38,539 bases of DNA. Source: Nitrobacter sp. Nb-311A. GTDB taxonomy: Bacteria; Pseudomonadota; Alphaproteobacteria; Rhizobiales; Xanthobacteraceae. The stretch is taken from the NCBI RefSeq assembly GCF_000152905.1, contig NZ_CH672420.1, positions 160,101 through 198,639 on the forward strand. The letters are read 5' to 3'. Below the pieces are notes generated by a model. The model ran no database searches and had not been told where the DNA came from. It saw only the letters and a program-made list of their open reading frames with translations. Numbering within the stretch: the stretch's first letter is position 1; each line of letters starts with the position of its first letter. The position numbers and the translations under genes were made by a program. Positions 2,693 to 34,879 of the stretch are shown piece after piece.

Positions 2693-3415
2693 ATGAGTGG
2701 CTCAAACTATCTCGATCTCGCCCGCGAGAAGCTGATTGTCGCTCTCGACTACTGGAACATCGAAGATGCAAGGAAGCTCGTTCGGGACCTGGACGACGAA
2801 GTCTCTTTTTACAAGGTCGGTTTAGGGTTGCAACTCGTCGGCGGAAACGAATTTGCCAGGGAACTCATCGCGGAGGGTAAGCGGGTTTTTCTGGATTACA
2901 AGTATTATGACATCGCAGAGACCGTTCAGCGCGCGGTCGCCCAGGCAGCGGAGTTGAAGATCACTTTCCTAACCGTGCATGGCGTTGCGAGCATCATGAA
3001 AGCTGCCGTCGCCGGTCGCGGCAACTCCGACATGAAGATTCTCGGCGTCACCGTGCTCACAAGCATGGACGCCGAGGACATCAAGGAAATGGGCTTCGAA
3101 TGCGGCGTAGAAGATCTCGTCGTTGCACGGGCGAAGAGGGCGCTTGAGGTTGGAGTTGATGGCGTCGTCGCATCGGCCCTGGAAGTCGCCGAGCTTCGCA
3201 AGCAGACTAGCAACAAGCTGATGATCGTGTCGCCCGGCATCCGCCCGAGTGGCGGCGCCAGGCATGATCAGAAGCGGGTGGCCACGCCGTTTGAGGCCGT
3301 GCGCGCGGGAGCTGATTATCTGGTGTTGGGCAGGCCCATCTACGCCGCGGACAATCCAAAAGCCGCCGCGCAGGCGATTATCCAGGAAATGGCCGCCGCG
3401 CTGCGCCCGGATTGA
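2693..3415 (+). CDS. pyrF: Orotidine 5'-phosphate decarboxylase
   Basis: Catalyses the last step of de novo UMP synthesis, decarboxylating OMP to UMP in the cytoplasm. The 240-residue protein has the short bacterial TIM-barrel form of the family. The signature [13 protein letters not shown] contains the catalytic D68, K70 and D73. LIVALDY near residue 14 is the first strand with the substrate-binding Asp, and [10 protein letters not shown] plus [10 protein letters not shown] form the phosphate-binding end of the barrel. The start is supported by GAGGT at 2679-2683, nine bases before the ATG, although an inverted repeat covers that site. The gene stands alone, 277 bases from lolD's coding neighbourhood and 104 bases before the next small gene; no pyrimidine-operon partner is adjacent. 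Confidence 0.95.
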
Positions 3416-3519
3416 GCAAGCTCACTTCCAGAAAGACTTGGGAATCCCGGCAGTGCTAGCGGGCTTGTCCCGTTCGGAAACGACTTGCGAAATGCATCAA
3501 GGGGCGGTATCGGGCCGCT

Positions 3520-3732
3520 ATGGCTCAAAAACTCAAACCTGGCGTGCGAGCCCGCGACGGCGGTGAATATACCTGTCCTGGTTGCGGCGCTGTCTACAGC
3601 GTGACGGTCTACACCAGTCCGTTCAAGGACACGGGTCAGGCGGATTGTAACGTCTGCAAACTGCCCATCAAGAGCTGGAACCACGCGACGGCCTGGTGGT
3701 CATACAAGTTGACCAAGCGGCCGCGCAAGTGA
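3520..3732 (+). CDS. Small zinc-ribbon-like protein, function unknown
   Basis: A 70-residue basic protein with two Cys-x2-Cys knuckles, CPGC (about 19-22) and CNVC (about 43-46), separated by about 20 residues, the layout of a zinc ribbon. Aromatic residues cluster after the second knuckle (KSWNHATAWWSYKLTKRP). Such proteins occur as conserved hypotheticals in Rhizobiales genomes and phages; the function is not known. Nucleic-acid or protein binding is only inferred from the fold and charge (pI clearly basic). The ribosome site is weak (AAGGGG is far upstream). It lies between pyrF and the left boundary of the accessory island and could be the last native gene before it. Confidence 0.7.
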   Translation: MAQKLKPGVRARDGGEYTCPGCGAVYSVTVYTSPFKDTGQADCNVCKLPIKSWNHATAWWSYKLTKRPRK

Positions 3733-3780
3733 TCCAATCCCCGATTGCCGTGGCGTGAGCGATTAAAGCGCCTCTTGTCA

Positions 3781-3853
3781 TGAATTAACCTAAGGGGTCG
3801 TTTTTCAGAATGACCTACTATTGCGGCCTTGGGTAGTGGGTCAGTTTGATTGT
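3781..3853. repeat. Left boundary repeat of the accessory island
   Basis: Begins TGAATTAACC (3781-3790), then GGGGTCGTTTTTCA (3794-3807), then an imperfect palindrome TGACCTACTA (3811-3820) / TAGTGGGTCA (3834-3843). TGAATTAACC and GGGGTC(A)TTTTTCA recur in the same orientation at 7359-7368 and 7383-7396. In addition, GGGTAGTGGGTCAGTTTGA (3831-3849, 19 bases) recurs perfectly inverted at 7394-7412. The element resembles insertion-sequence termini or a small MITE-like remnant. The family name cannot be given from the sequence alone. Confidence 0.7.
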
Positions 3854-3903
3854 GGCAGCCATAGTGCCTAGGAATCGGAGTGATTCAGGGCCATATTCGG
3901 GGC

Positions 3904-4161
3904 ATGTCGTCATCTCATCCAAAGCGCCCCCGCGATCCAAATCAGCTGGCGAAAGCTATCGTGGATATCGCCACAGGCAGCCTGCCACCTGAGGTTGACT
4001 CGGAACCTTCGCCAGCCTCACAGTTGGGCAGAATTAGGGGGCTCAAAGGCGGCCGCGCCCGCGCTGACAAACTCAGCGACGAAAGGCGTAGAGAGATCGC
4101 CCGTGAAGCCGCCGCTGCGAGGTGGCGTAAAGATGACGGCGGAAATAGCGATCCTGAATAA
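3904..4161 (+). CDS. Small basic KGG-motif protein
   Basis: An 85-residue protein. The N-terminal part KRPRDPNQLAKAIVDIATG is followed by an acidic/proline linker and the motif LGRIRGLKGGRARADKLS, then ERRREIAREAAAARW, ending acidic. This G-x-x-G-G-x-x-A-R-A plus 'REIAREAAAARW' layout belongs to a widespread uncharacterised family of small basic proteins sometimes called histone-H1-like; DNA or RNA binding is plausible but unproven. GTG 3880 is an alternative start (93 residues). Its 3' end overlaps the next gene by 29 bases in another frame, indicating translational coupling with the Ntn-hydrolase. It may be that enzyme's partner or substrate; this is inference from context. Confidence 0.72.
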   Translation: MSSSHPKRPRDPNQLAKAIVDIATGSLPPEVDSEPSPASQLGRIRGLKGGRARADKLSDERRREIAREAAAARWRKDDGGNSDPE

Positions 4162-5536
4162 GTCGGCTATAGCGTTAGCCGCTGATAGCGCAGTTACAAT
4201 TGGGACCAGCGACCAAGAAGACAAAACTTACGATTCAGCCGACAAGCTTTTCGAATTATGTCGTCATGACCCAATCGGGATCATGGTTTATAATGGTCTC
4301 AGTTTTGCTGAGGCCCCGCTGCAGTCGTTGATTAAGCGCTTTCGAAATGAATGTGGCCGTTTCGATAGCGTCAAAGAAGCTGCCTTCCAGTTTTTGCGTC
4401 ACCTCAACGATTTTGGCGTCAGTTCCCCTGACAGGGTGAAAGATGATGGGATCAGGCGGTTGGCCATGCCCATCATCGATCAGATTTTCAAACGCTTCCA
4501 GGCAGATTTGCAGAAGAGGCTAATGGACCACAAGCCTCAGGAAGAAATTGATTGGGCCGCTACTACGAACGACATGTTGGATACGGCAATAGATGTCTGG
4601 GATAGAATATATAAGCGAAGAAAAGACGCGGAGTTCATTGGAGAAGGGCCGGTTGTTATTTCCGAGCACATCGAACAGGAGCTTGTTAGCCTAGTCGCGA
4701 ATCATTCCCCAGGAAACGAAGCGCAAAAGGCGCGGATACTTGCAATTCTAAAACTTGCATTGCGGAAAGATTTGCTATCGGGCGGCTACACGGGAATCGT
4801 GATAGCGGGATTCGGCAAGAAAGAGCTCTTCCCAACGCTTCTGTCTTTCGAGATAGATGGAATGGTAGGGGATCGATTGAAGTACGTTGTCCGAAACGAG
4901 ACGGATATCGATAGAGACGGGCCGCGAGCGGCGATCATACCCTTCGCTCAGCGGGACATGGTCGATCGCTTCTTGTACGGCTTAGACGACCAGATCGAAC
5001 GATACCTGACCCAATTCTCACAAAGCACAATAACAAAAGTGCGAGAAGCGATCATAGGTCACATTTCTTTCGAAGACGATGATGATAAAAAAGGCTTCGA
5101 AGAAGCAGTACAGGATGCTGAGGAGGCTTACATATCCGGACTGAAAACCGGGGCCTTCGAGGAAATCAAAAAGAAATCTCGGTCTGAAATTGAGAGTCTA
5201 ATTGAGTTCATGCCAAAGCCAGAATTGGCAAAAATGGCCGAGGCATTAGTAAATTTAACGTCGATCAAAAAACGCGTGTCTCGGGGAATGGATACAGTAG
5301 GAGGGCCTATTGATGTGGCGGTGATATCAGAAGCTGAGGGGTTCGTTTGGGTAAAGCGAAAGCACTATTTCCCGTCAGAATTGAACCCAAGGTATCTGCA
5401 CCGCGTTGGACAGGCAGTTTGTCAGGAGGACAACAATGCACATCATGCAAAATCGAGCGCTGGAAGCTCTCGAAAGGGAAGAAAGACGCCAGCTAGGAAA
5501 GGAGAAGGTGCCGGAGGGGCTTCAAGAGGTAATTAA
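4133..5536 (+). CDS. Stand-alone proteasome-like Ntn-hydrolase (N-terminal Thr)
   Basis: A 467-residue protein whose start at ATG 4133 is supported by GAGGTGG at 4119-4125. After Met removal the N-terminus is Thr1. The following strand and turn, AIALAADSAVT, place Asp17 exactly as in proteasome beta subunits and HslV, and the lysine in SADKLFEL (Lys37 of the mature chain) takes the place of catalytic Lys33. HPIGIMVYNG matches the oxyanion-glycine strand. About 200 helical and acidic residues follow (for example FEDDDDKKGFEEAVQDAEEA), then VGGPIDVAVISEAEGFVWVK near the end, so it is much longer than a proteasome subunit. Catalysis (peptidase or amidase) and self-assembly are inferred. The last 30 residues are Ser/Gly/Lys/Arg-rich and are read over the next gene. 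The open frame extends upstream to 3995, but that would bury the nucleophile. Confidence 0.75.
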   Translation: MTAEIAILNKSAIALAADSAVTIGTSDQEDKTYDSADKLFELCRHDPIGIMVYNGLSFAEAPLQSLIKRFRNECGRFDSVKEAAFQFLRHLNDFGVSSPDRVKDDGIRRLAMPIIDQIFKRFQADLQKRLMDHKPQEEIDWAATTNDMLDTAIDVWDRIYKRRKDAEFIGEGPVVISEHIEQELVSLVANHSPGNEAQKARILAILKLALRKDLLSGGYTGIVIAGFGKKELFPTLLSFEIDGMVGDRLKYVVRNETDIDRDGPRAAIIPFAQRDMVDRFLYGLDDQIERYLTQFSQSTITKVREAIIGHISFEDDDDKKGFEEAVQDAEEAYISGLKTGAFEEIKKKSRSEIESLIEFMPKPELAKMAEALVNLTSIKKRVSRGMDTVGGPIDVAVISEAEGFVWVKRKHYFPSELNPRYLHRVGQAVCQEDNNAHHAKSSAGSSRKGRKTPARKGEGAGGASRGN

Positions 5537-5621
5537 ACAGACGCGTGAAGCAATCGATAAGGCGCTAGATAGACCGGCTATAAAAAATAAGGCACACTCC
5601 AAAATATCCCATAATGCTTGA
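5436..5621 (+). CDS. Small charged helical protein, function unknown
   Basis: A 61-residue product starting at ATG 5436 with a perfect AGGAGG (5424-5429) six bases upstream. It is rich in Glu, Lys and Arg (EALEREERRQLGKEKV, then EVIKQTREAIDKALDR) and looks like one or two amphipathic helices with a basic tail; no signal peptide or membrane segment. It overlaps the end of the Ntn-hydrolase by 101 bases in a different frame, so it is the third gene of a tightly coupled set. No family recognised. The strong ribosome site argues it is real and the Ntn-hydrolase tail in this overlap is the less constrained frame. Confidence 0.6.
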   Translation: MHIMQNRALEALEREERRQLGKEKVPEGLQEVIKQTREAIDKALDRPAIKNKAHSKISHNA

Positions 5622-5632
5622 CAGTTAAGCAT
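5614..5632. promoter_or_regulatory. Operator-like inverted repeat before the transposase gene
   Basis: ATGCTT (5614-5619), spacer GACAGTT, AAGCAT (5627-5632), nested inside ATAATG (5611-5616) and CATTAT (5639-5644). A TTGACA (-35-like) lies at 5618-5623. The site overlaps the stop of the preceding small gene and sits 11 bases before the transposase ATG, a place suited to a repressor or to an element end. Function is inferred only. Confidence 0.3.
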
Positions 5633-5642
5633 AAGGGTCATT

Positions 5643-6677
5643 ATGATCCGGCCTATGAACAGGCTGGACCGAAAGACCCGCGCCCAAATCCTTCACCTCC
5701 TTTGTGAGGGGCAATCTATCCGCGCCGTGACGCGGCTGACCGGATGCAGCAAAAACACCGTCGCGAAGTTGCTGGTCGAAGCCGGTCATGCCTGCGCTGC
5801 CTACCAGGACAAGGCGCTTCGCAACCTGTCCTGTAAGCGTGTCCAGATGGATGAAATCTGGTCGTTCGTTTACGCCAAGAACGCCAACGTGAAGGACGCC
5901 AAAGCCGCTCCGGCGACCGCAGGCGATGTTTGGACGTGGACAGCGATTGATGCCGACTCAAAGCTGATCGTTAGCTGGCTGCTCGGTGCTCGCGATATGG
6001 ACGCTGCTCTGGCCTTCACTGCGGACTTACGGAGCAGATTAAGCAATCGCGTCCAGCTCACCAGTGATGGCCATAGGCCCTATCTGACCGCCGTTGACGC
6101 TGTATTCGGTGACGATGTTGACTATGCGATGCTGGTGAAGCTGTACGGCGCGGACCCACAGGCTGAGGTCCGATATAGCCCCGCCAAGTGCATCGGTGCG
6201 GAAAAGAAGCCGAAGATTGGCAGCCCCGATCAGAAGCATATCAGCACATCATACGTTGAGCGCAGCAACCTCACGATGCGGATGCATATGCGCCGGTTTA
6301 CCCGGCTCACCAATGCGTTCTCGAAGAAGGTGGAGAACCACGCCGCAGCAATTGCGCTCCATACGATGTATTACAACTTCGTCCGCATCCATCAGACGCT
6401 CAAGGTCACGCCCGCAATGGCCGCTGGCGTAACTGACAAGCTTTGGGAGATGGAAGATTTGGTCGCCGTGCTAGAGCAATGGGAGCTGGCGAACTTCAAG
6501 CCAGAATATCAGTTCGTGGTCCGGCGGTATGCAATCGGGAAGGGCCATTCCGTCAGCGTGCTTTGGCGCGGCGGGGAAGTCGATACGATTTTCGGATTTG
6601 ATAAAGAAGCTGACGCGTTAGAGTGGATTAGGGATAAGTCTAGAGCGTGGCTCTTAGAGAGGCCGGTGCGAGCCTAA
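5643..6677 (+). CDS. IS1-type DDE transposase with extra C-terminal domain
   Basis: A 344-residue transposase. Residues 15-48 form a helix-turn-helix (EGQSIRAVTRLTGCSKNTVAKLL). The catalytic acidic residues are D70 in VQMDEIWSF, D142 in LTSDGH and E206 in SYVERSNLTMRMHMRRF, a spacing and wording that fit the ISMhu11-like branch of the IS1 family, read here from one continuous frame without the frameshift of classic IS1. After about residue 280 comes a 60-residue segment (YQFVVRRYAIGKGH..., then FGFDKEADALEWIRDKSRAWL) that resembles small stand-alone rhizobial proteins and is not needed for transposition. Alternative start ATG 5655. No convincing short terminal inverted repeats were found right beside the gene, so it may be an immobile or domesticated copy. 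Confidence 0.82.
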   Translation: MIRPMNRLDRKTRAQILHLLCEGQSIRAVTRLTGCSKNTVAKLLVEAGHACAAYQDKALRNLSCKRVQMDEIWSFVYAKNANVKDAKAAPATAGDVWTWTAIDADSKLIVSWLLGARDMDAALAFTADLRSRLSNRVQLTSDGHRPYLTAVDAVFGDDVDYAMLVKLYGADPQAEVRYSPAKCIGAEKKPKIGSPDQKHISTSYVERSNLTMRMHMRRFTRLTNAFSKKVENHAAAIALHTMYYNFVRIHQTLKVTPAMAAGVTDKLWEMEDLVAVLEQWELANFKPEYQFVVRRYAIGKGHSVSVLWRGGEVDTIFGFDKEADALEWIRDKSRAWLLERPVRA

Positions 6678-6804
6678 GCCCCCTTGTGAAGCCTTGCTTA
6701 AAGTGGTTTAACGCCCTCCTGTTGCCCTAAAGGCACGTCAACTTGCAAAGAATCAGGTAATTTTGAGACGGCCCCTAGACGCGGGGATTACTCTGGAGGG
6801 TTTT

Positions 6805-7149
6805 ATGTCCGTCGTGGCTCGTCGGAAAAAAGTTTCCCGAACGAAAAAGCCCATTCGAAAAGAATATAAAATTGAGTTGGTTGGAAAGCGTAGGTCTGAC
6901 GGAAGCTTGTTTGTTACAAGCCCAAATCTAGGACCTTTCAGCGCTGTTCTCCGAACTGGCCGATGGGAAGATGTGATCGGCTTTCTGAAAAAATTTTTAG
7001 AAGTAAATATTGGTCGCGTAGTTGAGTTGCGCTTGATACATGACGCGTCTGAATTGGTGAGTGATTCGGAAGAGCTACCCGAAATACCGCCAGCATATGT
7101 TGTAGCGGAGTTAACCCACCAACGTGCTAGTGCCCGTTCAACAAGCTAG
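6805..7149 (+). CDS. Small protein with HicB-like N-terminal pattern
   Basis: A 114-residue protein; start at ATG 6805 fits GGAGGG at 6795-6800. A lysine/arginine-rich leader (ARRKKVSRTKKPIRKEY) precedes YKIELVGKRRSDGSLFVTSP, then NLGPFSAVLRTG, then a helix WEDVIGFLKKFLE. Strand-'DG'-strand-'SP.L'-helix is the layout of the HicB antitoxin core, but no DNA-binding domain is evident at the C-terminus, which is acidic. It overlaps the following small gene by 26 bases, as in many toxin-antitoxin pairs. The family call is by eye only; it could be an unrelated small alpha/beta protein. The 127 bases before it hold no gene. Confidence 0.5.
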   Translation: MSVVARRKKVSRTKKPIRKEYKIELVGKRRSDGSLFVTSPNLGPFSAVLRTGRWEDVIGFLKKFLEVNIGRVVELRLIHDASELVSDSEELPEIPPAYVVAELTHQRASARSTS

Positions 7150-7366
7150 AGCACAACTAAAGGCCGCTGGGTTCAAACGCCGGACGGATGTCCGCGACGA
7201 AAAGGGTGAATGGTGGGCGCATCCAAGTGGGTGGCCCGTTCCTTTCCTGCAGTACATCGGCCTAGATAAAGGCAACTTTGACGCTGACCAACTTGCCTAC
7301 ACGTTGGCAATGAGTGGCCCATTTCGTCCGGGCAAGACGATCGGCCCCAACGCTTCCTTGAATTAA
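7124..7366 (+). CDS. Small protein, HicA-like in outline but lacking the key His
   Basis: An 80-residue protein starting at GTG 7124 (or GTG 7130), with only a distant GGAG upstream, so translation probably depends on the overlapping gene before it. ARAQLKAAGFKRR is a leading helix and strand. KGEWWAHPSGWPVPFL resembles the second strand of HicA (usually KGSHH..HP), but the catalytic-His position of 'GSH' reads 'GEW'. A C-terminal helix follows (DADQLAYTLAMSG). It may be an inactive or divergent HicA, or a separate family of GEW-containing small proteins. Its stop codon lies inside the right boundary repeat of the island. Confidence 0.5.
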   Translation: MLVPVQQARAQLKAAGFKRRTDVRDEKGEWWAHPSGWPVPFLQYIGLDKGNFDADQLAYTLAMSGPFRPGKTIGPNASLN

Positions 7367-7419
7367 CCAAGACGTTTCTTTCGGGGTCATTTTTCAAACT
7401 GACCCACTACCCGGCCTTG
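7359..7419. repeat. Right boundary repeat of the accessory island
   Basis: Carries TGAATTAACC (7359-7368) and GGGGTCATTTTTCA (7383-7396) as direct repeats of the left boundary, and TCAAACTGACCCACTACCC (7394-7412), which is a perfect 19-base inverted copy of 3831-3849. CGGCCTTG (7412-7419) also matches 3824-3831. Compared with the left copy it has about 11 extra bases between the first two blocks. It ends about 26 bases before the LexA box of the micro-ORF. Confidence 0.7.
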
Positions 7420-7425
7420 ACTCCA

Positions 7426-7459
7426 AGAACAAATCAGAAACAATGTTCCTATTATGTTC
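7426..7459 (+). promoter_or_regulatory. LexA (SOS) box on a promoter -10 element
   Basis: GTTC (7445-7448), seven bases, GTTC (7456-7459) is the alphaproteobacterial LexA operator GTTC-N7-GTTC. The spacer itself contains TATTAT (7450-7455), a five-of-six match to the -10 hexamer, with AGAACA (7426-7431) as a weak -35 at 18-base spacing. LexA binding would therefore block RNA polymerase directly. The micro-ORF starts 20 bases downstream. Confidence 0.8.
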
Positions 7460-7478
7460 TAATCGAGGAGGCCGAATC

Positions 7479-7580
7479 ATGTTGAGAATGTTTGTCGAGG
7501 AGGCGACGGCGCTGGCATCGATTGTGCTGTTTGTCGGAATGGTCGCTGTCTGGGCGCAGCTTATTCCACAGCTTTCGTGA
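7479..7580 (+). CDS. SOS-controlled 33-residue membrane micro-protein (SidA-like candidate)
   Basis: The ORF has GAGGAGG (7465-7471) seven bases before ATG 7479. The product begins MLRMFVEEATALASIV, continues LFVGMVAVWAQ and ends LIPQLS. One hydrophobic span (about residues 10-28) would cross the inner membrane, with a short acidic N-terminal stretch. The gene has its own LexA box on the -10 and its own terminator 43 bases after the stop, and lies before dnaE. SidA of Caulobacter crescentus, an SOS-induced inner-membrane protein of 29 residues that blocks division through FtsW, has the same size class, topology and control; homology is proposed, not shown. It would be missed by gene finders with a 60-residue cut-off. 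Alternatives are another SOS membrane peptide or a TA-type toxin. Confidence 0.72.
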   Translation: MLRMFVEEATALASIVLFVGMVAVWAQLIPQLS

Positions 7581-7622
7581 ACGGGCGATCGGGCGACTGG
7601 GGAAAACGAGAACAGCCGCGTA

Positions 7623-7677
7623 GGTGAGGGGAATTTGCGTGGACTCGCCCCGCGCAAGTCCTCACCATTCCTTTTTT
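7623..7677 (+). terminator. Rho-independent terminator after the SOS micro-ORF
   Basis: GGTGAGG (7623-7629) pairs with CCTCACC (7660-7666), and an inner stem TTGCG (7635-7639) pairs with CGCAA (7653-7657). A run of six T (7672-7677) follows. It lies 45 bases before dnaE, so it separates the LexA-controlled transcript from dnaE, or limits read-through into it. Confidence 0.7.
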
Positions 7678-7721: not shown

Positions 7722-10700
7722 ATGACTCAGAAGACCGTCGCGGCTCACGCAGGTTTCGTTCACCTGCATGTCCACTCGGCCTATTCGTTATTGAAGGGCT
7801 CGATCAAGATCCAGAAGCTGGCGGAACTGGCCAGGGCGGATCACCAACCCGCATTGGCGCTCACCGACACCGACAATATGTTCGGCGCACTGGAGTTCTC
7901 CGATAAAGTCGCGGGCTATGGCATCCAGCCGATCGTCGGCTGTGAACTGGCGGTGGATTTCGGAGATCAGGATGCCAATGCCCGGAACGCGATTCCGCTC
8001 GCCCGAGTCGTCTTGTTGGCGACGCGGGAAGCTGGCTATCGTAACTTGATGCGATTGAACTCCCGGGCGTTCCTTGAAACGCCGGAGCATTGCAGCCCGC
8101 ACGTCAGTTGGGAGTGGCTTCGGGATGAGAACGAAGGTTTGATCGCCTTGACCGGCGGGCCCGATGGTCCTGTGGCGATGGCGTTCAACGCCGATCATTC
8201 AGCGCTTGCGACCGCCCGCTGCGATCAACTCGCTATGATTTTCGGCGACCGGCTCTATGTGGAGTTGCAGCGTCATGGCCTTGACAAGGAGCGGCGGGTC
8301 GAAGGGGCGTTGATCGATCTTGCTTATGCGAAGGGTCTTCCGCTGGTTGCGACCAACGAGCCGTATTTTGCCACCTCCGATGATTATGAAGCTCACGACG
8401 CCTTGCTGTGTATCGCCGGCGGTCGCCTGGTTGCGGAGACAGAGCGCGAGCAATTGACTCCCGATCATCGCTTCAAAACCCGCGCGGAGATGGCTGTCCT
8501 GTTTGCCGATATCCCGGAAGCGTTGGCGTCCACGATTGAAATCGCGGAACGCTGCGCGTTCCGGCCCAGGACACGCAAGCCGATCCTTCCGCGCTTTACG
8601 GTGGCCTCGGACGCCGGCGCGGCGGATGGGAAAAACGATGAAGCCGCCGAATTGCGGCGGCAGGCGGAGGAGGGGCTTGCGAAGCGGCTGGCGGTGCATG
8701 GCGTCTCGACGGGGATGACGGAAGAAGACTACGGAAAGCGCCTCGGTTTTGAGCTCGACGTCATCACGCGCATGAACTATGCGGGCTACTTCTTGATCGT
8801 CGCGGACTTCATCAAATACGCCAAGTCCAAGGGAATTCCCGTCGGACCGGGCCGCGGTTCCGGCGCCGGCTCATTGGTGGCTTATGCGCTCACCATCACC
8901 GATCTCGACCCGATCCGGTTCGGCCTGCTTTTCGAGCGCTTCCTCAATCCCGAACGCGTATCGATGCCGGACTTCGATATCGATTTCTGTCAGGAACGGC
9001 GCGGGGAAGTCATCGACTACGTGCAGAAGCGCTACGGTCGCGATCAGGTTGCGCAGATCATCACCTTCGGCACGCTGCAGGCGCGCGGAGTGCTGCGTGA
9101 CGTCGGCCGCGTCTTGCAGATGCCTTACGGTCAGGTGGATAAGCTGACCAAGCTGGTGCCGCAAAACCCCGCGGCTCCTGTCTCGCTGAAGCAGGCGATC
9201 GAAGGAGAGCCGAAGCTTCAGGCATTTCGTGATGAGGATCCGGTGGTGGCGCGCGCGTTCGATATCGCCCAGCGCCTCGAGGGGCTGACACGTCACGCCT
9301 CGACTCATGCGGCGGGCATCGTGATCGGTGACCGCCCCTTGAGCGAACTCGTGCCGCTGTATCGCGATCCGAAGTCCGACATGCCGGTAACCCAGTTCAA
9401 CATGAAGTGGGTGGAGCCGGCCGGCCTCGTGAAGTTCGACTTTCTCGGCCTGAAGACGCTAACGGTTCTGGACGTTGCGGTGAAGTTGCTGAAGCAGCGC
9501 AATATCCACGTCGATCTCGCCACGCTGCCGCTCGACGATGCGGCCAGCTACCAGATGCTGACCCAAGGCGATGTGGTCGGCGTGTTTCAGGTTGAAAGCC
9601 AGGGCATGCGGCGGGCGCTGGTGGACATGCGCCCGGACCGCTTCGAGGACATCATCGCGCTGGTCGCGCTGTATCGGCCGGGACCGATGGCGAACATTCC
9701 GACCTATTGCGCGCGCAAGCACGGTGAGGAGGAATCGGAATATCTTCATCCGATGCTCGAGCCGATCCTGAAGGAAACTTTCGGCGTCATCATCTATCAG
9801 GAACAGGTGATGCAGATCGCCCAGGTCATGGCCGGCTACTCGCTCGGAGACGCCGACCTGTTGCGGCGGGCGATGGGCAAGAAGATCCGCGCGGAAATGG
9901 AAAAGCAGCGAGCGATTTTTGTTGCCGGCTCGGTAAAAAGCGGCGTTCCCCAAGGCCAGGCGGAAACGATCTTTGAACTGCTGGCGAAGTTTGCTGATTA
10001 CGGCTTCAACAAAAGCCATGCGGCGGCCTATGCGCTCGTCTCCTACCAGACGGCGTATATGAAAGCGCATTACCCCGTCGAGTTTCTCGCGGCGTCAATG
10101 ACGCTCGATATGAGCAATACCGACAAACTTTCGGAATTTCGCGCGGAAGCCCAGCGCCTGGGCATCAAGGTCGAAGCGCCATCGGTCAACCGCTCTGGCG
10201 CGACCTTCGAGGTGAGCGAAGGCGTCATCTGTTATGCGCTGGCCGCGTTGAAAGGGGTTGGTTCGCACGCGGTCGAGCTGATCGTCGAGGCGCGGAAGAA
10301 CGGCTTGTTCACCTCGCTGGCCGATTTCGCCGCCAGGGTGCCGCCGCGCGCCATCAACAAGCGCGTGATCGAAAGCCTTGCAGCCGCCGGAGCGTTCGAT
10401 GCGCTCGAGCCAAACCGTGCTCGCGTGTTCGCGGGCGCCGAGGCGATTCTTGCCGCGTGCCAGCGTAGTCACGAGGCAATGACGCTTGGTCAGAATGATA
10501 TGTTCGGCGGCATGGCGGACGCGCCCGACATCCTGCTGCCTCGGGTCGAACCCTGGTTGCCTGCCGATCGCCTGAGGCGCGAGTATGAGGCGGTCGGATT
10601 TTTCCTCTCGGGACATCCGCTCGACGACTATGTGACAGCGCTGAAACGGCTGCGCGTCCAGTCCTGGGTCGAGTTTTCCCGCGCGGTGAAGGCTGGTGCG

Positions 10701-11225
10701 ACCGCCGGCAAGGTGGCGGCGACAGTGGTTTCGCGGACGGAGCGGCGAACCAAGACCGGTAATAAGATGGGCATCATCGGCCTGTCCGATCCGACCGGCC
10801 ACTTTGAAGCGGTGCTGTTCTCGGAAGGTCTGGCGCAATTTCGGGACGTCCTTGAGCCGGGAGCAGCGGTGCTGTTGCAGCTCGACGCGGAGTTGCAGGG
10901 CGAGGATGTGCGGGCGCGGGTGTCCCGTGCCGAGCCACTCGACGATGCCGCCGCCAAGACACAGAAGGGGCTGCGGATTTTCCTTCGTGATTCAAAGCCG
11001 CTCGAGTCGATCGAAAGGCGTCTCCAGGCAAACGAAAACGGGGATCCGGCCGGGGGCGCCGGAGTCGCTGCAAGGCAAGCCGGAGACGGCGACGTCTCGG
11101 TGGTGATGCTGCTGGATCTTGAAACGGAGGTCGAAATAAAACTTCCGGGCCGGTTTCGGGTTTCACCTCAGATCGCCGGCGCGATCAAGGCGGTTTCGGG
11201 GGTCGTGGACGTTCAGGCCATCTGA
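7722..11225 (+). CDS. dnaE: DNA polymerase III subunit alpha (replicative)
   Basis: Catalytic subunit of the replicative polymerase, 1167 residues, the usual DnaE1 length. The N-terminal PHP domain opens with HLHVHSAYSLLKG (His14, 16, 18). The polymerase active site is PDFDIDF (Asp419 and Asp421), with a third catalytic Asp in KFDFLGLKT (about 573). GPGRGSGAGS is the palm/nucleotide-binding loop, and NKSHAAAYALVSYQTAYMKAHYP is the conserved fingers segment. HhH and OB-fold regions follow (about 870-1050). There is no 3'-5' exonuclease domain, which is supplied by DnaQ in trans. ATG 7722 is chosen; TTG 7710 in frame would add four residues, and neither has a strong ribosome site. A terminator before it suggests its promoter lies at about 7680-7720 or that read-through contributes. 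Confidence 0.97.
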   Translation: MTQKTVAAHAGFVHLHVHSAYSLLKGSIKIQKLAELARADHQPALALTDTDNMFGALEFSDKVAGYGIQPIVGCELAVDFGDQDANARNAIPLARVVLLATREAGYRNLMRLNSRAFLETPEHCSPHVSWEWLRDENEGLIALTGGPDGPVAMAFNADHSALATARCDQLAMIFGDRLYVELQRHGLDKERRVEGALIDLAYAKGLPLVATNEPYFATSDDYEAHDALLCIAGGRLVAETEREQLTPDHRFKTRAEMAVLFADIPEALASTIEIAERCAFRPRTRKPILPRFTVASDAGAADGKNDEAAELRRQAEEGLAKRLAVHGVSTGMTEEDYGKRLGFELDVITRMNYAGYFLIVADFIKYAKSKGIPVGPGRGSGAGSLVAYALTITDLDPIRFGLLFERFLNPERVSMPDFDIDFCQERRGEVIDYVQKRYGRDQVAQIITFGTLQARGVLRDVGRVLQMPYGQVDKLTKLVPQNPAAPVSLKQAIEGEPKLQAFRDEDPVVARAFDIAQRLEGLTRHASTHAAGIVIGDRPLSELVPLYRDPKSDMPVTQFNMKWVEPAGLVKFDFLGLKTLTVLDVAVKLLKQRNIHVDLATLPLDDAASYQMLTQGDVVGVFQVESQGMRRALVDMRPDRFEDIIALVALYRPGPMANIPTYCARKHGEEESEYLHPMLEPILKETFGVIIYQEQVMQIAQVMAGYSLGDADLLRRAMGKKIRAEMEKQRAIFVAGSVKSGVPQGQAETIFELLAKFADYGFNKSHAAAYALVSYQTAYMKAHYPVEFLAASMTLDMSNTDKLSEFRAEAQRLGIKVEAPSVNRSGATFEVSEGVICYALAALKGVGSHAVELIVEARKNGLFTSLADFAARVPPRAINKRVIESLAAAGAFDALEPNRARVFAGAEAILAACQRSHEAMTLGQNDMFGGMADAPDILLPRVEPWLPADRLRREYEAVGFFLSGHPLDDYVTALKRLRVQSWVEFSRAVKAGATAGKVAATVVSRTERRTKTGNKMGIIGLSDPTGHFEAVLFSEGLAQFRDVLEPGAAVLLQLDAELQGEDVRARVSRAEPLDDAAAKTQKGLRIFLRDSKPLESIERRLQANENGDPAGGAGVAARQAGDGDVSVVMLLDLETEVEIKLPGRFRVSPQIAGAIKAVSGVVDVQAI

Positions 11226-34052: not shown

Positions 34053-34754
34053 TCAGTACTTGCGGTAAATACCGATCAGTCTGCCCTGAATCTGGACACG
34101 GTTGGGCGGAAGAATGCGAACCTCGTATGCGGTATTCGCCGGCTCCAATGCGATCGAAGCACCGCGACGGCGAAAGCGTTTCAACGTCGCTTCCTCGTCA
34201 TCGATCAGGGCAACGACAATGTCGCCGGTGTCGGCGGTCTGGTTGCGCTGAATCAACGCCAGATCGCCATCGAGGATTCCGGCTTCGACCATGGAATCGC
34301 CCCGCACCTCAAGCGCGTAGTGCTCTCCGGTGCCGAGCATGTCGGGTGGCAGGCTGATGGTGTGGCTGCACGTTTGCAGCGCCTCGATCGGCGTGCCGGC
34401 TGCGATCCGTCCCATGACCGGAACGGCGACCGGACGCTCGCCGTCCTCAACGCTGCCCCCGCTGTTGCGGCGAACCTTGCCCAGATTGCCCTCTATGACG
34501 CTCGGTGTGAAACCGCGACGGCCACCGCCGCTTGCGGCAAGCTCCGGCAGCTTGATAACTTCGATGGCGCGGGCGCGATTGGGCAGGCGGCGGATGAAGC
34601 CTCGCTCTTCCAGTGCAGTGATCAGGCGATGAATGCCGGACTTCGAGCGTAAATCGAGCGCGTCCTTCATTTCATCGAACGAGGGCGGCACGCCGGATTC
34701 TTTCAGTCGTTCGTTGATAAAACGCAGGAGTTCGTACTGTTTGCGCGTCAGCAT
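34053..34754 (-). CDS. lexA: SOS repressor LexA
   Basis: Represses DNA-damage genes and cleaves itself when activated by RecA. The 233-residue form begins [17 protein letters not shown], the LexA winged-helix N-terminus (about 1-70) with [17 protein letters not shown] as the recognition region. A longer linker (about 70-110) follows, then the self-cleavage bond A119-G120 in GRIAAGTP, the catalytic Ser154 in RGDSMVEAG and Lys192 in EATLKRF. The open frame extends upstream to 34859, but those residues are not LexA-like. A LexA box lies 111 bases upstream of the start, supporting autoregulation. Its likely target in this window is the micro-ORF at 7479. Confidence 0.97.
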
Positions 34755-34864
34755 CCCGACCCAGTCCCTGGTTGGTGGTTCCTGCCGATGACGGGATGTC
34801 GGGTCTGCAGCCCTTGGCATCCGAGGCACGAGCAGTTGAAACAAATCATGAACAGACACTATAT

Positions 34865-34879
34865 GTTCGATATGTGTTC
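34865..34879 (-). promoter_or_regulatory. LexA box upstream of lexA
   Basis: On the plus strand GTTC (34865-34868), seven bases, GTTC (34876-34879); read on the gene strand it is GAAC-N7-GAAC. This is the alphaproteobacterial operator and sits between moeA and lexA, so it is the expected autoregulatory site. Confidence 0.85.

What the first reader, a model, noticed from the sequence alone, without database searches (positions are those of the whole stretch)
7426..7677. Self-contained SOS unit: LexA box on the -10, 33-residue membrane micro-protein, own terminator, next to dnaE
Seen: GTTC-N7-GTTC at 7445-7459 with TATTAT inside the spacer, GAGGAGG and ATG 7479, a single-span hydrophobic product, and a hairpin plus T6 at 7623-7677. 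Known: Caulobacter SidA (29 residues, inner membrane) is SOS-induced and inhibits division through FtsW. Inference: this is a rhizobial-type counterpart acting as a damage checkpoint peptide. ORF callers that ignore short frames miss it.
Basis: partly seen in the sequence, partly recalled or inferred. Interest (0 to 1): 0.8.

Follow-up and report, generated by a model that had tools for sequence, protein, structure and literature searches.

The report
SidA-like SOS division-stop peptide
The window holds a real, strongly conserved 33-residue membrane peptide gene, with LexA (DNA-damage repressor) sites in its promoter and the replicative polymerase gene just after it, which looks like a relative of the Caulobacter peptide SidA that halts cell division when DNA is damaged.

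Summary
The 33-residue frame (7479-7580) is a gene: found in 9 of 9 genus genomes (Nitrobacter, by named records) and 230 of 296 family genomes, crude omega 0.055. Of 80 named loci, 75 keep two facing LexA boxes, GAAC-N7-GAAC-N3-GTTC-N7-GTTC. The box alone proves nothing. The new link to SidA is position: SidA over the curated cut-off stands just before dnaE1 in 30 of 30 loci read, as this peptide does. Similar short membrane peptides lie before dnaE1 in 25 other families of the order: 46 of 104 loci hit on the sense strand (26 of them model seeds), 1 antisense, 0 in reversed DNA. Profiles align without gaps over 24 columns. The curated SidA model gives the window peptide only 14.6 bits (cut-off 35), so I call it a SidA-like homologue, not a curated SidA. 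Corrections: the likely -10 is AACAAT (7439-7444), between two boxes, not TATTAT; the hairpin terminator is plausible here but not conserved. Division inhibition through FtsW is inferred, not shown.

The parts
7417..7422 (+). -35 element TTGACT
   Evidence: TTGAC[T/G] at -58 to -65 (once -101) from the start codon in the 25 loci printed
7427..7441 (-). second LexA site, GAAC-N7-AAAC on the + strand (one mismatch; exact GAAC-N7-GAAC within 160 nt upstream in 78 of 80 named relatives)
7439..7444 (+). likely -10 element AACAAT, 16 nt after the -35, between the two LexA sites
   Evidence: consensus scan only
7445..7459 (+). LexA box GTTCCTATTATGTTC
   Evidence: GTTC-N7-GTTC within 160 nt upstream in 77 of 80 named relatives
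7465..7471 (+). ribosome site GAGGAGG
7479..7580 (+). SidA-like 33-residue single-span membrane peptide gene
7623..7677 (+). hairpin (7623-7666) and T6 (7672-7677), probable terminator; not conserved
   Evidence: terminator-like element in 10 of 77 loci, window included
7722..11225 (+). dnaE1, replicative DNA polymerase III alpha (open frame from TTG 7710, ATG at 7722)
   Evidence: NF004226 1515 bits, over cut-off
34053..34859 (-). lexA in the same window (open frame from GTG 34859; the LexA domain begins at residue 37, so the true start may lie later)
   Evidence: TIGR00498 184.7 bits, over cut-off
34865..34879 (-). LexA box before lexA, GAACACATATCGAAC read on the lexA strand

Best explanation
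The locus is a SidA-like SOS checkpoint gene. LexA sits on two facing boxes that flank the -10 and keeps the promoter off. Damage makes RecA filaments, LexA cuts itself, and the 33-residue peptide is made, inserts in the inner membrane by its single helix, and acts on the FtsW/FtsI/FtsN septal wall-synthesis complex, holding division until repair is done and LexA re-accumulates. Shown here by computation: the gene, its conservation as protein, the conserved LexA boxes, lexA and recA with the same box in the same genome, and homology and shared position with SidA. Inferred: LexA binding, induction by damage, membrane insertion, FtsW as target, division arrest.
For: Frame in 9 of 9 genus and 230 of 296 family genomes, 35 of 47 genera. 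Of 80 named loci: 79 ATG, 76 of 32 aa and 4 of 33 aa, double LexA box in 75, dnaE motif downstream in 75. Purifying selection, crude omega 0.055 over 79 unique sequences. lexA in the window and recA in the genome each carry the same box. Profile-profile match E 1e-5. A model from 29 peptides of other families of the order scores the window peptide 38.5 bits and the SidA set 12.9-25.5 (median 16.4), against at most 4.0 for 922 background frames; among 2342 hydrophobic segments those at 8 bits or more were all frames of this kind before dnaE. LexA box within 600 nt before dnaE in 50 of 104 order loci against 1-7 of 104 for six control patterns. SidA's published action: PMC4211646 passages. FtsW A31, F145 and A246, positions of SidA or DidA suppressors in that paper, are present in the window genome's FtsW.
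Against: The curated SidA model gives 14.6 bits against a cut-off of 35, and 0 of 61 relatives, own genome included, pass it. The SidA profile alone is not specific: 15 overlapping segments of long frames, by eye from about three proteins, reach the window's 15.1 bits among 2342, and 1 of 2000 shuffles of the window peptide exceeds it. The lowest SidA score with the bridge model (12.9) is no higher than the best of 2000 SidA shuffles (13.1). The bridge seeds were picked by eye. No expression or phenotype data. Of the nine genus loci, L006 and L007 (named: L048, L050) have no exact box, and one site in the window is off by one base. Sixty-six of 296 family genomes gave no match, and 58 of 104 order loci and 72 of 80 class loci gave no peptide at 12 bits. 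FtsW conservation is expected of an essential protein and says little.
Confidence: 0.75

Rival explanations
1. An SOS-induced membrane peptide with another job, such as a TisB- or DinQ-like peptide that lowers membrane potential and growth, rather than a septal inhibitor.
For: Size, one span and LexA control fit these too (DinQ abstract in the listing; TisB recalled).
Against: Profile and positional match to SidA. An antisense RNA partner, common for such peptides (recalled), was not searched for.
Confidence: 0.13
2. A leader reading frame and attenuator whose job is to regulate dnaE1 after damage, with the peptide itself unimportant.
For: Position before dnaE1 in the window's family and in the SidA family; a hairpin lies between the two genes in the window.
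Against: Selection acts on the amino-acid sequence (omega 0.055); the hairpin is not conserved (10 of 77); the distance from the peptide stop to the dnaE motif varies from 162 to 319 nt in 75 loci and is 1116 nt in L011.
Confidence: 0.08
3. A chance frame and chance box.
For: The box alone is at chance level in the window.
Against: Conservation of frame, box pair and position.
Confidence: 0.01

Closest known systems
Caulobacter SidA (NCBIfam NF033228)
   Same: 29 versus 33 residues, one hydrophobic span, LexA-type boxes in the promoter, just before dnaE1, ungapped alignment over 24 columns.
   Different: Scores below the curated cut-off. SidA core is [RE/RD]-x-x-[A/S]-[LF]-x-SV-x-x-FVWM, here EE-x-x-AL-x-S-x-x-x-F-x-GM-x-x-W. 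Two facing boxes here; two sites in the same direction in those SidA promoters where two are seen (exact in L334, L338, L341; near-exact in the ten). The dnaE motif follows at 162 nt or more, not 40-93.
Caulobacter DidA
   Same: Small membrane division inhibitor acting on the FtsW/I/N complex (PMC4211646 passages).
   Different: SOS-independent, induced by DriD, binds FtsN (same passages). Sequence relation not tested.
YneA (Bacillus), SosA (Staphylococcus)
   Same: SOS-induced division inhibitors; YneA acts on FtsW (titles and abstract starts in the listing).
   Different: Another phylum; no sequence relation tested.

Membership tests
SidA (NF033228 equivalog) | score over the curated cut-off of 35 bits | tested here: not met
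   14.6 bits, E 0.024, residues 8-29 on profile 7-28. In the SidA family itself 21 of 92 matching genomes also stay below it.
SidA-like homologues (wider sense) | sequence homology to SidA | tested here: met
   hhalign E 1e-5, probability 82%; a bridge model from other families scores both; unrelated hydrophobic segments stay under 8 bits with it. Caveats: lowest SidA scores overlap the best shuffle; the SidA profile alone is not specific.
SidA-like homologues (wider sense) | same gene neighbourhood (before dnaE1) | tested here: met
SidA | LexA-repressed promoter | tested here: inconclusive
   boxes conserved in letters and place, as expected; binding and induction themselves cannot be tested here
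SidA | single inner-membrane span | tested here: inconclusive
   hydropathy peak 2.24 over 17 residues (on the 45-aa reading of the frame); no topology or localisation data
SidA | inhibits division through FtsW | not testable with these tools
   needs bench work; FtsW suppressor positions are conserved, which is weak

The most novel reading that the evidence does not exclude
SidA is not a Caulobacter speciality but an ancient alphaproteobacterial SOS division checkpoint, present before dnaE1 at least since the ancestor of Caulobacterales and Hyphomicrobiales, fast-evolving and missed by the curated model; and its lasting attachment to dnaE1 means that damage couples the division stop to supply of the replicative polymerase.
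Probability: 0.5. Interest if true: 0.75.

Novelty: new variant of a known kind. Interest (0 to 1): 0.6.

Why it matters
In the library searches made (listings, few papers opened) I saw no SOS division inhibitor reported for rhizobia and their kin. A SidA-like gene at a fixed address, before dnaE1, gives a testable candidate genome by genome, and a natural set of divergent peptides with which to map what FtsW recognises.

Tried and rejected
Box as evidence by itself: rejected, at chance level. TATTAT as -10: rejected (27 nt from the conserved -35, not kept in the relatives). Terminator as a defining part: rejected, 10 of 77 loci (the criterion, energy below -12 and TTTT within 12 nt of the stem, is mine and may admit chance hairpins). 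The SidA family model on relatives: at E up to 1 its matches were scattered and none of 61 genomes passed the cut-off; over 385 class genomes it found one, which supplied the dnaE neighbourhood. The window-family profile over the class found only two genomes of the window's own family (2 of 385). The SidA profile against hydrophobic segments of long frames was less specific than the shuffles suggested; kept as a result against. In one search a motif search placed only 6 of 30 SidA loci; one search replaced it by the match coordinates and placed 30 of 30. In the FtsW alignment two of ten rows (L356, L359) came out in the wrong frame and were dropped. In one search, 6 of 110 order loci were dropped for lack of a dnaE motif (L132, L133, L136, L142, L148, L155); three of these carry peptides seen and served as seeds. 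The 29 seeds (26-36 aa) of the order model were picked by eye; of the 46 hits among 104 loci, 26 are seeds and 20 are not, and 17 of those 20 have an exact box. Ten of the 120 genomes with dnaE matches, and 57 of the 137, were not fetched; one of the 80 class loci (L283) is only 296 bases. No structure was predicted: a lone helix would tell little.

Full report
What is there. The 33-codon frame 7479-7580 starts with ATG, has GAGGAGG 7 nt before it, and codes for MLRMFVEEATALASIVLFVGMVAVWAQLIPQLS. A mechanical reading also allows an upstream ATG at 7443 (45 aa), but that start lies in the promoter, and the relatives' frames match from the ATG corresponding to 7479.

Is it more than chance? The box alone is not: two exact GTTC-N7-GTTC in the window with 1.42 expected, 49 of 100 shuffles reaching two, and 136 in the genome against 112 for the reversed pattern. 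Both window boxes turn out to stand before SOS genes: one before this peptide, the other, 34865-34879, before lexA. recA of the genome has GAACATATTGCGAAC 106-145 nt upstream, by which start is taken.

The gene is conserved. The peptide is found in 9 of 9 genus genomes and 230 of 296 family genomes, 35 of 47 genera. Named records of the nearest kin are Nitrobacter winogradskyi and N. vulgaris; others are Bradyrhizobium, Tardiphaga, Rhodopseudomonas and Afipia (256 stretches encode a relative, the best 80 kept, so the counts below describe the closest ones). Nitrobacter belongs to Hyphomicrobiales. Of these 80: 79 begin with ATG and one with GTG, 76 are 32 aa and four 33 aa, GTTC-N7-GTTC lies within 160 nt upstream in 77, GAAC-N7-GAAC in 78, both at a spacing of exactly 18 in 75, and a dnaE N-terminal motif lies downstream in 75, 162-319 nt after the peptide's stop; with a looser motif 77 of 81, window included. 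Of the nine genus loci one (L009) is cut off at the contig end, two (L006, L007) have no exact box, two (L002, L004) have only the GAAC site exact, and the window and L005 only the GTTC site: the operator is a little frayed in this genus. Over 79 unique sequences differences fall on codon positions 1, 2, 3 at 0.129, 0.049 and 0.390, and single-base codon differences are 86% synonymous against 25% expected, a crude omega of 0.055. The pairs are not independent, so this is a description rather than a test, but its size leaves little doubt that a protein is kept.

Promoter. The usual order in the family is TTGACT, then GAAC-N7-GAAC-N3-GTTC-N7-GTTC. The window has GAAC-N7-AAAC (7427-7441) and GTTC-N7-GTTC (7445-7459). 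The only promoter-like pair found is TTGACT 7417-7422 and AACAAT 7439-7444, spacing 16 (one found, 0.7 expected, so it rests on the conservation of TTGAC, not on the scan). So the -10 probably lies between two facing LexA sites.

Terminator. Hairpin 7623-7666 and T6 7672-7677 fold well in a tight stretch (4 of 200 shuffles as good) and unremarkably in a longer one (48 of 200). By a folding criterion of my own, 10 of 77 loci, window included, have a terminator-like element in this interval. It is a local feature.

Link to SidA. NCBIfam's SidA model is the one family of that library that names the peptide, at E 0.024 and 14.6 bits, below its cut-off of 35; Pfam names none. A search of 385 class genomes with the SidA model found one genome. 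In it SidA stands directly before dnaE1, with an ABC ATPase that by eye is LolD before it. I read the 30 loci fetched, all over the cut-off: 30 of 30 have the dnaE motif 40-93 nt after the SidA stop, 20 of 30 an exact box within 150 nt, and the other 10 GAAC-N7-GAAT. In the window the order is a LolC/E permease, a LolD-like ATPase, pyrF, a 513-aa frame, an IS1-type transposase, then the peptide and dnaE1. A LolD-like match lies in the flanks of 58 of 80 named family loci, 17 of 30 SidA loci and 14 of 30 order loci (flanks are limited and related ATPases are not excluded).

Profiles. Window family against SidA: 24 ungapped columns, 38% identity, E 1e-5, probability 82%. To bridge the gap I took the interval before dnaE1 in other families of the order. 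A model from 29 such peptides, excluding the window's family and SidA, gives 38.5 bits to the window peptide (best of 2000 shuffles of it 12.6) and 12.9-25.5 (median 16.4) to the SidA set, 922 background frames reaching at most 4.0; the best of 2000 shuffles of one SidA reached 13.1, so the lowest SidA scores overlap the best shuffle. Among 2342 hydrophobic segments of long frames, those at 8 bits or more with this model were all frames of this kind before dnaE, one of them (L140) a long frame counted as such by its place and box. The SidA model is less specific: segments of other long frames reach 15-18 bits, as high as the window peptide's 15.1.

Spread. In 104 usable order loci (110 fetched of 120 with a match in 121 genomes) the model hits, at 12 bits, the sense strand within 600 nt before dnaE1 in 46, the antisense strand in 1, and reversed DNA in 0; 26 of the 46 are seeds and 20 are not, and the hits fall in 25 families besides the window's own. 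The LexA box is there in 50 of 104, against 1-7 for six control patterns. Peptide and box go together: 40 of 46 with peptide have a box, 10 of 58 without. In 80 class loci (of 137 matched in 152 genomes) there are 8 peptides at 12 bits and 0 in both controls, and 19 boxes against 0-4. In the 80 named loci all 80 hits of the model are at the gene and none elsewhere in 459,861 bases, both strands. So the family is common in the order and seen, more thinly and with a model made for the order, elsewhere in the class; absence in the rest may be real or a matter of divergence.

Mechanism. In Caulobacter SidA is a 29-residue inner-membrane peptide, LexA-controlled, that interacts with FtsW and FtsN and is thought to hold the FtsW/I/N complex inactive (PMC4211646, passages); its promoter is among the early ones of the regulon and stronger than that of uvrA (PMC12700426, passages). 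I infer the same action here. FtsW A31, F145 and A246, positions of suppressor mutations named in PMC4211646, are identical in the window genome's FtsW; this is expected of an essential protein and is weak support.

What is known. Papers holding SidA with dnaE and SOS: none; SidA with Caulobacter and Bradyrhizobium: one, PMC13384398, of which I saw passages, on HigX; SidA with Sinorhizobium, cell division and DNA damage: three, seen as a listing, and passages of one, PMC4117421. The founding SidA paper (2011, recalled) is not held, so I cannot say what it reports on conservation or on the neighbourhood. Within these searches I saw no report of SidA outside Caulobacter or of its place before dnaE.

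Verdict. A real gene and a SidA-like homologue, confidently; an SOS checkpoint peptide, probably; FtsW as target, plausibly. It fails the curated SidA cut-off, so I file it as a variant, not as a curated SidA.

Noticed in passing
window 34053-34879: lexA itself lies about 23-27 kb downstream in the window and has the window's second GTTC-N7-GTTC box before it.
   Followed up: yes
window 2693-6677: Between the LolD-like gene and the peptide the window has pyrF, a 513-aa frame without a Pfam match and an IS1-type transposase; in L043 an ABC ATPase gene stands directly before sidA.
   Followed up: partly
window 6763-7366: Two overlapping short frames (128 and 80 aa), laid out like a small two-gene cassette, no Pfam or NCBIfam match.
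   Followed up: no
L141, L153, L175, L187, L191, L204, L210, L226, L229, L231, upstream of dnaE: Ten order loci have an exact LexA box before dnaE1 but no peptide at 12 bits; the peptide may be more divergent there, or dnaE1 itself may be the LexA target.
   Followed up: no
L204, L210, L229, upstream of dnaE: Behind a paired GAAC and GTTC box at 18-nt spacing these three have another short hydrophobic frame that the model does not reach: perhaps a further branch.
   Followed up: no
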